Positions 36,514 through 41,564 of a stretch of 64,000 bases of DNA are shown here, in pieces (position 1 is the stretch's first letter; the number at the start of each line of letters is the position of its first letter). The position numbers and the translations under genes were made by a program. The notes under the pieces are model-generated. The model was not told the DNA's origin, ran no database searches, and saw nothing but the letters and a program-made list of their open reading frames with translations. Source of the stretch: Candidatus Thiodubiliella endoseptemdiera (lineage in GTDB: Bacteria > Pseudomonadota > Gammaproteobacteria > PS1 > Pseudothioglobaceae); assembly GCA_013416635.1 (NCBI GenBank), contig JACCHT010000001.1, forward strand, positions 434,001 through 498,000. Direction: 5' to 3'.

Positions 36514-37794
36514 ATGGAATTAACAATAAAAAACATCGGCACTATTAAAGAAGCGGATATTAAGTTATCGGGTTTAACAGTAATCGCAGGTGAAAATGAC
36601 AGTGGGAAAAGCACTGTTGGTAAATTGATGTTTTCTATTATTAAGGCAATTAGCAAATACAAAGACGAGCTAGAAGAAGGCAAAGAATATAAAATTTTAA
36701 AAACTGTTGAGCGTATCTATTTTTACAATAGACAACATTTTTTTGATGTATCAGAATTTAAAGAACTTTTTCACCCTAGGCATTTTGCAAATGAAATTAA
36801 TCAACATGGTGCTAAGGCAATTACTAGTAGAGTAGAGTTTTTGGAGGAACACAAAATATCTAACGATAGAACTCATTCTCTTTTTCAAATTCTAGAAAAA
36901 ACAATCACAGAAAATGAAAATGAAAATATAGCCAAAATGAAGGCGTTTACCAAAGTAATCAATTCTGAATTTTCAGGAGTAATTACCAACCAAAATATAA
37001 AAAAAGATGCTTATGTAAATATTGCAGAATCCGAAGAAACCATATTGGCTATCAAAGTTAAATACGAAGAATCTGAGGAAGATGCGCTGTATCATTTTGA
37101 TCAACAAGATGAATTATATTTTAACGACAGCACCCTCATTGAAACGCCGATGCTTTTAAATTTTCATGAGTCAATTAGAGAATCTAAAACCGCCTTTGAG
37201 CCAAGAACTACACACAATCGACGCCTTGGTAGAGCGAAAATCGCCTTTCATATAAAAGATTTAGAGATGAAACTCAGAGATTCGGCTAATAATGATTATT
37301 TTTACAAGCCAAACGATGTATATCAAAAAGCCAAAAATACCATTAAAGGAACAATTAAATACAGACCTCAAAGCAACGACTTTTTTTACTTTAAGGACAA
37401 TGGACAAGAGCACAGAATGATAAATGTGGCGAGCGGTATCAAAACATTTGGTATGTTACAAATGTTGTTAGTAGGAGAGTTTATCAATGAAAGGTCGTTA
37501 ATTATCCTAGACGAACCTGAAGTGCATTTACATCCAAACTGGCAATTAAAATTCTCAGAACTGGTTACCTTACTGGTTAAAAATGGTGCTAATATTCTCG
37601 TTACAACACATAGCCCGTATATGGTGGAAGCATTAGAAAGATATAGCGAAAAATATAAAACAGAAGCAAACTTTTATTTAGCCAAGGAGGGGGTTATTAA
37701 ATCAGAAAATAACAACAAAACCTTGTCAGAAATTTTTACAAAACTCTCGCAACCTTTTGATGTTTTTCGTGAAATGGATGCCGATAAGTTGTGA
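36514..37794 (+). CDS. SMC/OLD-like AAA ATPase of a putative two-gene system
   Basis: Protein of 426 residues. Walker A GENDSGKST is at 26-34 in a typical RecF/OLD-type N-terminus (MELTIKNIGTIKEADIKLSG). A variable middle part (about 40-270) is followed by a signature-like VASGIKTFGMLQMLL, Walker B LIILDEPEVHLHP at about 329 and the H-loop TTHSPYMVEAL. There is no TOPRIM domain as in full OLD nucleases. The last codons overlap the next gene (GTGA), which encodes a nuclease-like protein. The gene is AT-rich and sits between aspS and nadA, so horizontal gain is likely. Anti-phage defence is an inference. Confidence 0.8.
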   Translation: MELTIKNIGTIKEADIKLSGLTVIAGENDSGKSTVGKLMFSIIKAISKYKDELEEGKEYKILKTVERIYFYNRQHFFDVSEFKELFHPRHFANEINQHGAKAITSRVEFLEEHKISNDRTHSLFQILEKTITENENENIAKMKAFTKVINSEFSGVITNQNIKKDAYVNIAESEETILAIKVKYEESEEDALYHFDQQDELYFNDSTLIETPMLLNFHESIRESKTAFEPRTTHNRRLGRAKIAFHIKDLEMKLRDSANNDYFYKPNDVYQKAKNTIKGTIKYRPQSNDFFYFKDNGQEHRMINVASGIKTFGMLQMLLVGEFINERSLIILDEPEVHLHPNWQLKFSELVTLLVKNGANILVTTHSPYMVEALERYSEKYKTEANFYLAKEGVIKSENNNKTLSEIFTKLSQPFDVFREMDADKL

Positions 37795-38333
37795 ACGAAT
37801 TAGAATCCAAATTCAATGCAAAATATTCACGCTGTTTATCAAATTTTAAAACCATGAGTATTGACACAAGCCAACCAAACAAACCTCCTTTATGTTCTGA
37901 TACTCACTATAAATCTTATAACTTTGATAAGATTGTTAAAGAAGAATACCCTGACAAGCATCCGGCATCGCCTGATACGCTGATTATAAAAAACAACAAA
38001 GTGTATTGCGTTGAATTCAAAAATTTAACCAAGATAAAAGTCAACAAATATAAAAAAAACCTTCAAGAAAAACTTCAGCAAGGCACGGAAGTCTTGTTAA
38101 AAATTTTAGATGATTTGTCAATAAAACCTAAAAATCTTAAATTTATATTTTGCGTCGTTTACAAAGAAAATAAAAATAAATATACTTACGCAAGCAATAT
38201 AGAAAACAAAGTTTCTCATTTTGGTTTAAAAGATGCCGATAAATATGATTTTTATCAGCATATTTACACTCAACCTGTTACTTTTTTCAGACAACAATTT
38301 ATAGACAAAATAGATAAAAATCTACCTTGTTAA
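37791..38333 (+). CDS. Small PD-(D/E)xK-like protein, partner of AAA ATPase
   Basis: Protein of 180 residues, not assigned to a family. The stretch [19 protein letters not shown] (about residues 61-79) has Asp62, then Glu75-x-Lys77 on a predicted beta hairpin, which is the layout of PD-(D/E)xK nucleases; a preceding helix carries further acidic residues. The rest is lysine-rich and helical. It starts at a GTG overlapping the ATPase stop, so the two are translationally coupled. No signal peptide or membrane segment is present. Nuclease activity is inferred from the motif only. Confidence 0.6.
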
Positions 38334-40066: not shown

Positions 40067-40227
40067 GAGACCTTTGCATAAATATGAATAATCATCAAAA
40101 CGCCATCTTTCATCAAATTACAAACTTTTTAAAAACACCCTTAGCCCTGCTAGGAGTGGATTTAAAAAATTTCCAATTTAATAAAATCTGTCATTTTGCT
40201 AATCATCCCTATTTATGCAAAGGTCTC
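40067..40227 (-). mobile_element. MITE copy 9 (161 bp, orientation B), next to a solo end
   Basis: Full-length copy with perfect target duplication AAAGT (40062-40066 and 40228-40232). It inserted just beside the solo terminal repeat. Its internal 48-codon open frame exits in phase with the pentapeptide gene downstream. Confidence 0.95.
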
Positions 40228-40242
40228 AAAGTTAATGTTCAA

Positions 40243-41564
40243 ATGAAAAAATTATTTTCTAAACTTGAAAGTTGGCTACAAGATATTGCCCTAGAAATCA
40301 AACTAAAAAACCTTAAACAGGCAATCAAAAATCACATCAAGCGCTACTATCGTAGTTACCACATTCCTTTTTATATAATTGCGCTGTTACTTGTCTATAG
40401 TATTTATCTTTTCATTCCTGATTTCTACTGTTGGATGCTTAAGATACTTGATTTAGACAAAAAAATAAAACCAAGTGATATTGGTGCAGGCTTCATTGCA
40501 ATTATTGGTTTGATTTTATTTTTTCGAAGACTAAGAGAACAAGCAAAACAAACTGAAAATCAAAAACAACAAATCAAACTACAAATTGACCAGCGAATAG
40601 ATGAACGCTTTAATTCAGGCGTGAGTTTACTCGGTTCAAGCGAAACCTCAGCACGCACAGGGGCGATCTATGCCCTGTATGAATTGGCAAAAGAGGAGGG
40701 AAAATACTGCAAACAAATTGCACAAATTCTATGCTCACACATTCGCTCGAAAACCAATGAAGATAAATATCAAAACGAACATAAGAAACGCCCATCAAAT
40801 GAAATACAAACCACTATCGATCTTTTGTTTAGAGAAGATGGCTTGTATGCACAAGATTTTGCAAAGGAAGAAGGTTTTCCTAAGGTTAATTTATCTTTTG
40901 CTTATTTGGTTGGGGCAAATTTCACAGAAGCACAATGCCAAGGGGCAATTTTGGCAAGCACAATGCCAAGGGGCAAATTTTTAAGCACAATGCCAAGGGG
41001 CAAATTTCACAGAAGCACAATGCCAAGGGGCAATTTTGGCAAGCACAATGCCAAGGGGCAAATTTCACAGAAGCACAATGCCAAGGGCAAATTTTCGGGA
41101 GCACAATGCCAAAAGGCATTTTTGGAAAGCACAATGCCAAGGGGCAGATTTTTGGTAGCACAATGTCAAGGGCAGATTTTTTGGAAACACAATGCCAAGG
41201 GGCAAATTTTAGAAGCACAATGCCAAGGGGCAGATTTTTCGGATGCAGCTTTTCAAGGCGCCCATACTGATGTAAACATAAAGTATCCCATTCGAGCAGA
41301 GAGTTGGTAAACAAACAGAGTTAAAAACTATGTTGTTAGAAGGTGAGATAGCCCAAAATACAATCAAAACAATTGAAGATAATAAGCCTTATATGGATGA
41401 CGATTGGTATGAAAAATATGCAAGCAATTATTGACGAAAACAAAGGGAAAGACATCAAGTATGGTGTGCCAGAAGGTTGCATAACTGGTGTATTAGAAGA
41501 CAATGAAGAAACTCAAGCAATTATTGCCGAGATTAAAAAATTTAGCAGAATTGCAAACAACTAA
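40243..41564 (+). pseudogene. Membrane pentapeptide-repeat protein, frame-disrupted
   Basis: From an ATG at 40243 (MKKLFSKLESWLQD). Two transmembrane helices (about residues 35-58 and 80-98) are followed by a coiled-coil stretch (REQAKQTENQKQQIKLQIDQ), a helical domain (SGVSLLGSSETSARTGAIYALYELAKE, IAQILCSHIR) and a pentapeptide-repeat tract (GANFTEAQCQGA). The frame stops at 41310. The natural C-terminus continues in a second frame (FEQRVGKQTELKTMLLEGEI) and a third (IDENKGKDIKYGVPEGCITG) to 41564. Within the tract the repeats themselves rotate frame. The real start may be affected by MITE fusion upstream. Confidence 0.75.
40931..41243 (+). repeat. Tandem 27-30 bp repeats encoding pentapeptide units
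   Basis: Eleven units begin CACAATGCCAAGGGGCA. Starts are at 40931, 40959, 40986, 41016, 41044, 41074, 41102, 41130, 41159, 41188 and 41216, so spacings are 28, 27, 30, 28, 30, 28, 28, 29, 29 and 28. Only a 30-bp unit encodes two whole pentapeptides (AQCQGANFTE). Other spacings shift the frame, giving STMPRGKF-type and KHNAKGQI-type peptides, yet the main frame stays open throughout. Confidence 0.9.

What the first reader, a model, noticed from the sequence alone, without database searches (positions are those of the whole stretch)
36514..38333. Candidate undescribed defence module: SMC/OLD-like ATPase plus small PD-(D/E)xK-like protein
Two coupled genes (GTGA overlap) sit as a compact island between aspS and nadA. 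The ATPase has Walker A GENDSGKST, a VASGIKTF signature-like motif, LIILDEPEVHLHP and TTHSPY. Its partner has D62...E75-x-K77 in a nuclease-like arrangement. Known two-gene ATPase/nuclease systems (Gabija, Septu, PARIS) have different partners (UvrD-like, HNH, TOPRIM), so a PD-(D/E)xK partner of 180 residues may be a distinct type.
Basis: partly seen in the sequence, partly recalled or inferred. Interest (0 to 1): 0.75.

Follow-up and report, generated by a model that had tools for sequence, protein, structure and literature searches.

The report
WonAB-like ATPase plus nuclease defence pair
Two adjacent bacterial genes encode a DNA-repair-style ATPase and a small nuclease that very probably work together as an anti-virus alarm-and-kill switch of a kind first characterised in 2025 in cholera bacteria; this copy is a diverged, unlisted member, not a new type.

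Summary
ORF A (36514-37794) is an intact OLD/SMC-type ABC ATPase, and ORF B (37791-38333, GTGA overlap) carries an invariant D62...E75-F-K77. The pair is an island between aspS and nadA: of 76 related genomes with both flanking genes on one contig, 69 have 18-50 bp there, 5 have exactly this pair, and 2 have other cargo. The pair is AT-rich and evolves much faster than its neighbours.

Homologous pairs with the same B family (invariant D46, D62, E75, K77 and K94 in 21 of 21 proteins) occur on two plasmids, a faecal phage contig and 25 viral contigs. In 14 of those contigs the pair sits between gpA and gpQ of P2-like prophages, the known old/tin anti-phage hotspot. This strongly supports defence.

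[quoted passage not shown] B matches no PADLOC model (including PD-T4-4_B and HEC-02B), so it is an unlisted family of that kind. Most likely mechanism: the ATPase senses infection and releases or activates the nuclease, aborting infection, perhaps by cutting RNA.

The parts
36514..37794 (+). Gene A: OLD/SMC-type ABC ATPase, 426 aa, probable sensor/regulator subunit
   Evidence: Pfam AAA_15 59.7 bits; AF2 pLDDT 82.3; SMC/Rad50/PtuA heads Z 15-18.5; orthologues in 4 other genomes
36589..36615 (+). Walker A GENDSGKST (A residues 26-34)
   Evidence: sequence; invariant G26, N28, G31, K32
37426..37449 (+). ABC signature-like VASGIKTF (A residues 305-312)
   Evidence: sequence; N304, G308, K310 invariant
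37498..37536 (+). Walker B and D-loop LIILDEPEVHLHP (A residues 329-341)
   Evidence: sequence; DEPE and LHP-x-WQ invariant
37603..37620 (+). H-loop TTHSPY (A residues 364-369)
   Evidence: sequence; THSPY invariant
37791..38333 (+). Gene B: PD-(D/E)xK-type nuclease, 180 aa, probable effector; GTG start overlaps A stop (GTGA)
   Evidence: AF2 pLDDT 74.8, pTM 0.75
37926..37928 (+). B Asp46, invariant (possible second metal ligand)
   Evidence: 21 of 21 homologues; role inferred
37974..37976 (+). B Asp62, the D of PD-(D/E)xK
   Evidence: 21 of 21
38013..38021 (+). B Glu75-Phe76-Lys77, the ExK of PD-(D/E)xK
   Evidence: 21 of 21
38070..38072 (+). B Lys94, invariant, on the helix after the ExK strand
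   Evidence: 21 of 21; helix 81-108 in model

Best explanation
The pair is a two-gene anti-phage defence module of the known 'OLD-ABC ATPase + PD-(D/E)xK nuclease' kind (WonAB-like), inserted between aspS and nadA. Shown here: an intact pair with overlapping genes; the A and B families travel together on plasmids and prophages, including the P2 defence hotspot; the catalytic residues of both proteins are invariant; the aspS-nadA site is empty in most relatives. Inferred from WonAB and from OLD-family systems: A dimerises with ATP, holds B in a complex and keeps it harmless; a phage-derived trigger sensed by A releases or activates B; B's metal-dependent nuclease then shuts the cell down (abortive infection) before virions are made. 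More speculative: B cuts RNA (tRNA or rRNA) rather than chromosomal DNA. In WonAB the nuclease stops translation without degrading DNA, and the closest curated profile to two B orthologues is the RNA-cutting bunyavirus cap-snatching endonuclease.
For: A+B always together: 5 of 5 genomes of the order with B also have full-length A, and all 5 full-length A matches have B next door. The same B family lies directly downstream of A homologues on Acinetobacter and Klebsiella plasmids and on phage contig MT835532, in 25 viral contigs, and between hflC and hisZ in another gammaproteobacterium. 14 of the 25 viral contigs have it between gpA and gpQ of P2-like prophages, the site of old/tin and a tested defence hotspot (PMC9122126). 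Sporadic insertion at a conserved site, 5 of 76. Low GC, 0.28-0.33 against 0.41-0.47 in the flanks; A 58-60% and B 46-53% identical to the other copies in its genus where aspS is 92-93%. Invariant D46/D62/E75/K77/K94. B's fold search is topped by PD-(D/E)xK enzymes; Pfam L_protein_N 26.8 bits against cut-off 27, NERD and HSDR_N weaker. The WonAB mechanism is from PMC12137116.
Against: No phage-resistance data for any member of this exact family. WonA/WonB sequences could not be compared. The B fold matches are individually weak (Foldseek E 0.016 at best; Z 7.0 is within the range of non-relatives, and small GTPases also appear at Z 5-6). The window copy has no integrase or other defence gene adjacent. 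RNA as target rests on analogy only.
Confidence: 0.78

Rival explanations
1. Toxin-antitoxin or addiction-like maintenance pair: B is a nuclease toxin and A merely its neutraliser, keeping the island in the genome without phage sensing.
For: In WonAB, WonB alone is toxic and WonA protects (PMC12137116); the pair is compact and sporadic.
Against: The site is empty in 69 of 76 relatives and a broken B exists next to an apparently intact A (L067), so loss is tolerated; the WonAB authors argue against TA behaviour; homologues occupy the P2 hotspot, which is enriched in defence.
Confidence: 0.1
2. DNA-restriction or anti-plasmid system: the A dimer clamps foreign DNA like Rad50/SMC and B cuts it directly (Mre11-Rad50- or Wadjet-like).
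For: A's best structural matches include SMC heads and Rad50; PD-(D/E)xK enzymes are mostly DNases.
Against: A shows no long coiled-coil arms; between Walker A and the signature it has short helices and strands. The characterised WonAB does not degrade genomic DNA.
Confidence: 0.09
3. Housekeeping DNA-repair ATPase with a nuclease partner (RecF/Rad50-like), not defence.
For: SMC/RecF family resemblance.
Against: Absent from the great majority of relatives, fast evolving, AT-rich, carried by prophages and plasmids.
Confidence: 0.03

Closest known systems
WonAB (Vibrio cholerae WASA-1 prophage; PMC12137116)
   Same: Two-gene operon: OLD-ABC ATPase followed by a small PD-(D/E)xK nuclease; Walker A, Walker B, H-loop and nuclease Lys at comparable positions (WonA K34/E300/H333, WonB K71; here K32/E334/H366, K77); homologues in prophages.
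   Different: Direct sequence relation not testable here. The Walker B Glu to H-loop His spacing is 32 here and 33 in WonA by the published residue numbers, and A is longer between Walker A and Walker B. This copy is chromosomal, between housekeeping genes.
'OLD-ABC ATPase + novel REase' class (Krishnan et al. 2020, NAR 48:10045, as cited in PMC12137116)
   Same: Same domain pairing and gene order; in about 0.96% of bacterial genomes according to PMC12137116.
   Different: The paper was not held, so its defining alignment could not be compared.
PD-T4-4 (Vassallo 2022, PMC9519451)
   Same: A hits PD-T4-4_A models at 87.6 and 76.3 bits; nuclease partner of similar size.
   Different: B does not match the PD-T4-4_B model (PDLC04034, 190 positions): no hit at E<=10, none in the genome.
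HEC-02 (PADLOC candidate)
   Same: A's best PADLOC hit is HEC-02A, 98 bits; HEC-02B proteins also carry a D...ExK motif after an ATPase.
   Different: B shares only about 30 columns around the motif with HEC-02B (hhalign E 0.05); HEC-02A proteins have a different Walker B context (WDEPEANLNP).
Septu / retron PtuAB, PARIS, Gabija
   Same: Same ATPase superfamily and fold.
   Different: Partners are HNH, TOPRIM (DUF4435) and UvrD-like proteins, not a PD-(D/E)xK protein.

Membership tests
[quoted passage not shown]
   Pfam AAA_15 above cut-off; invariant motifs in 14 homologues; SMC/Rad50/PtuA head fold Z 15-18.5
OLD-ABC ATPase + PD-(D/E)xK nuclease modules (WonAB kind) | Adjacent small partner with PD-(D/E)xK catalytic residues | tested here: met
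   D62, E75, K77 invariant in 21 of 21
PD-(D/E)xK superfamily | Predicted structure significantly similar to solved PD-(D/E)xK enzymes | tested here: inconclusive
   Top rows are PD-(D/E)xK enzymes (Can2 Z 7.0, rmsd 4.2, 141 aligned; EcoO109I, BspD6I, cap-snatching endonucleases), but no E below 0.001 and no Z of 8 or more
OLD-ABC ATPase + PD-(D/E)xK nuclease modules (WonAB kind) | Co-occurrence and operon structure | tested here: met
   5 of 5 genomes, overlapping or abutting genes; same in plasmid and viral homologues
WonAB proper | Sequence homology to WonA (AWB73975.1) and WonB (AWB73976.1) | not testable with these tools
   Sequences not held in any collection that could be queried by accession
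WonAB proper | Both subunits needed for phage protection; nuclease stops translation; complex formation | not testable with these tools
   Needs experiment or complex prediction
PD-T4-4 | PD-T4-4_B nuclease component | tested here: not met
   No hit of B to any PADLOC model at E<=10; PDLC04034 = PD-T4-4_B, no match in the genome (the control genomes did not ring either)
HEC-02 | HEC-02B component | tested here: not met
   No hit of B; profile comparison limited to about 30 motif columns, E 0.05; one viral B of the family hits PDLC04217 weakly, E 0.0014
Septu (PtuAB) | HNH nuclease partner | tested here: not met
   Partner is B with D...ExK; NCBIfam PtuA 32.8 bits against cut-off 500
PARIS | DUF4435/TOPRIM partner | tested here: not met
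   No such hit for B in Pfam or PADLOC
Gabija | TOPRIM fused to ATPase, UvrD-like partner | tested here: not met
   A is 426 aa without a TOPRIM hit; no helicase gene beside it

The most novel reading that the evidence does not exclude
B founds its own PD-(D/E)xK family, separate from WonB and PD-T4-4_B: an RNA endonuclease built like viral cap-snatching endonucleases (D46, D62, E75, K77, K94 matching La Crosse/Ebinur Lake virus D52, D79, D92, K94, K108 by order and partly by spacing, 13 residues between the two acids in both). It would be controlled by an OLD-ABC ATPase and would abort infection by cutting tRNA or rRNA.
Probability: 0.2. Interest if true: 0.55.

Novelty: new member of a known kind. 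Interest (0 to 1): 0.36.

Why it matters
The pair extends a barely characterised class of defence systems (one experimentally dissected member, 2025) to a chromosomal site in small gammaproteobacterial genomes. It also supplies a B family that the annotation libraries searched here (PADLOC-DB 2.0.0, NCBIfam, Pfam, PHROGs) do not recognise, although it is found in many P2-like prophages at the old/tin hotspot. The seven invariant B positions and the near-threshold cap-snatching profile hit make the open question of what WonB-type nucleases cut directly testable.

Tried and rejected
Direct scans of genome contigs and viral contigs with A or B alone, and with the narrow alignments, found nothing; broader alignments did. 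Phmmer and profile searches of B against PDB sequences found nothing meaningful. Membership in PD-T4-4, HEC-02, Septu, PARIS and Gabija was rejected on the partner. The second fold look listed small GTPases among the Z 5-6 rows, so the fold search alone was not taken as proof of a nuclease. No full-length A without B and no B without A was seen in the order. Promoter and terminator scan not above chance, so separate transcription was not claimed. A clean proof that nadA travels with the pair was tried: nadA and yebC of G066 look more like the pair-bearing genus than its own, but G052 does not fit, so it stays a suggestion. WonAB sequences could not be obtained; the Krishnan paper is not held.

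Full report
Check of the observation. The flanks are aspS (ends 36472) and nadA; nadA most likely begins at ATG 38339, 5 bp after B's stop.

Gene A. Pfam gives AAA_15 59.7 bits (cut-off 32.1) and AAA_21 57.9 (cut-off 27). PADLOC's best are HEC-02A 98 bits, PD-T4-4_A 87.6, NsnB 80.7 and AriA 64.1. PHROG 14430, a phage family of unknown function, matches nearly full length at 230 bits. An AlphaFold2 model with 14 sequences has pLDDT 82.3 and pTM 0.78; VIA-align gives SMC heads, Rad50, retron and Septu PtuA, AriA and GajA at Z 15.2-18.5. So it is an OLD/SMC-type ABC ATPase without long coiled-coil arms and without a fused TOPRIM domain.

Gene B. No curated family reaches its cut-off, but sub-threshold hits converge on nucleases around the motif: L_protein_N (the bunyavirus cap-snatching endonuclease; up to 26.8 bits, E 6e-6, cut-off 27), NERD and HSDR_N. 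In 21 homologues, most of them 17-53% identical to the window B, the residues conserved in all 21 are S23, D46, D62, E75, F76, K77 and K94, which is the PD-(D/E)xK constellation. A profile from 16 viral and plasmid B proteins finds the window B at E 3.5e-13 and nothing else significant among 598 window ORFs; profile-profile comparison gives 98.8% probability, E 1.4e-16 over 162 columns. The AlphaFold2 model (17 sequences, pLDDT 74.8, pTM 0.75) places D62 just before one strand (63-67) and E75-x-K77 just after the next (70-74), followed by a long helix (81-108) that contains K94. Foldseek's first rows are PD-(D/E)xK enzymes (EcoO109I, Nt.BspD6I, La Crosse, Ebinur Lake and LCMV cap-snatching endonucleases), but none is below E 0.001. 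VIA-align is led by the CRISPR ancillary nuclease Can2 (Z 7.0, 141 residues, rmsd 4.2), with PspGI, Mus81, XPF, FokI and McrBC lower and unrelated GTPases mixed in at Z 5-6. I take motif, conservation and topology together as good evidence for a PD-(D/E)xK nuclease; the fold search alone would not prove it.

Occurrence. In the order (83 genomes) B is found in 5 genomes of 2 genera, each time with full-length A directly upstream and in the same place, aspS-A-B-nadA-yebC. In 76 genomes aspS and nadA could be measured on one contig: the gap is 18-50 bp in 69, 1869-1906 bp (the pair) in 5, and 539 and 595 bp (other short cargo) in 2. The pair is AT-rich (GC 0.28-0.33 against 0.41-0.47 in aspS and nadA) and fast evolving (A 58-60% and B 46-53% identity to the other three copies in its genus, where aspS is 92-93%). 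The A copy from the second genus (G066) is closer to those three copies (68-70%) than the window copy is. This is the pattern of a horizontally exchanged accessory module.

Mobile homologues. A homologues covering 97-100% of the query occur on an Acinetobacter plasmid, a Klebsiella mobilizable plasmid and a faecal phage contig; each is followed by a gene with the S-x-D...EFK motif, although B itself was not detectable on plasmids by direct search. Twenty-five IMG/VR contigs carry the pair. In 14 of them a P2 gpA-type replication protein lies on one side and a gpQ portal gene on the other, identified by PHROGs for three and by tblastn for all; several are near-identical contigs, so the number of independent events is smaller. 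That gpA-gpQ interval is where P2 carries old and tin and is a tested hotspot of anti-phage systems (PMC9122126). In another gammaproteobacterium the pair sits between hflC and hisZ.

How it most likely works. The closest characterised system is WonAB of the V. cholerae WASA-1 prophage (PMC12137116): a two-gene operon of an OLD-ABC ATPase and a PD-(D/E)xK nuclease variant. Both are needed; ATPase-site mutations and nuclease K71A abolish protection; the nuclease alone is toxic, inhibits translation and does not degrade DNA; the outcome is abortive infection. By analogy A senses infection and controls B, and B shuts down the cell. Shown here: architecture, conservation, association and mobility. 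Inferred: sensing, complex, abortive outcome. Speculative: RNA as target. The near-threshold match to RNA-cutting cap-snatching endonucleases is the only independent hint; their catalytic residue numbers are partly from memory, supported by the mutant names in the PDB titles.

Comparison with known families. [quoted passage not shown] Formal membership: B does not match PD-T4-4_B or HEC-02B, so it is not a member of those. I file it as a new member of the known kind, in a B family that PADLOC-DB 2.0.0, Pfam, NCBIfam and PHROGs do not name.

Verdict. A real, well-supported probable defence module, of ordinary kind in 2026, with modest added value: an unlisted nuclease family, its P2-hotspot association, and a clean empty-site series in a chromosomal location. 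Interest 0.36.

Noticed in passing
L016 2511-5991 (G000:C1:1292000-1302000): Same genome, between trpA and hemE: an AbiLi-like ATPase (161.9 bits) with a small TOPRIM-like partner, next to a HEC-02-like pair whose ATPase is in two pieces (apparently interrupted) and whose 172-aa partner hits HEC-02B.
   Followed up: partly
L017 4360-7464 (G000:C9): Three-gene set: DUF262-like protein, OLD/ABC ATPase and a 281-aa protein; layout resembles Menshen.
   Followed up: no
L004 597-2433 (G000:C21): ATPase plus 289-aa TOPRIM-like protein, an OLD/PARIS-like layout.
   Followed up: no
L086 (G041) and L087 (G002), aspS-nadA interval: The same site holds other short cargo of 539 and 595 bp in two genomes; one has a small membrane-protein-like ORF. 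The site may be a recurrent insertion point.
   Followed up: partly
L013 (G066) nadA-yebC compared with aspS: aspS of G066 resembles its own genus, while nadA and yebC are closer to the other pair-bearing genus, as if the pair arrived by recombination together with its downstream flank.
   Followed up: partly
L037 490-2285, L038 3921-5683: Viral contigs with an AriA/OLD-like ATPase followed by a different 164-168 aa family with D...ELKG, possibly another PD-(D/E)xK-type partner without a family name.
   Followed up: no
L067 5001-5615: The B gene of this prophage copy is frameshifted while A is intact, so loss of the nuclease is apparently tolerated.
   Followed up: partly
window 40084-41310: ORF downstream of yebC ends in many repeats of an AQCQGA(N/D)F-type pentapeptide-like unit with frame shifts within the repeat; G058 has a relative with an uninterrupted repeat (L012 12933-13985).
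   Followed up: no
L019 1665-3368: The Acinetobacter plasmid pair lies just downstream of DUF488 and DUF4326 genes and a RelE/ParE pair, possibly a small defence cluster.
   Followed up: no
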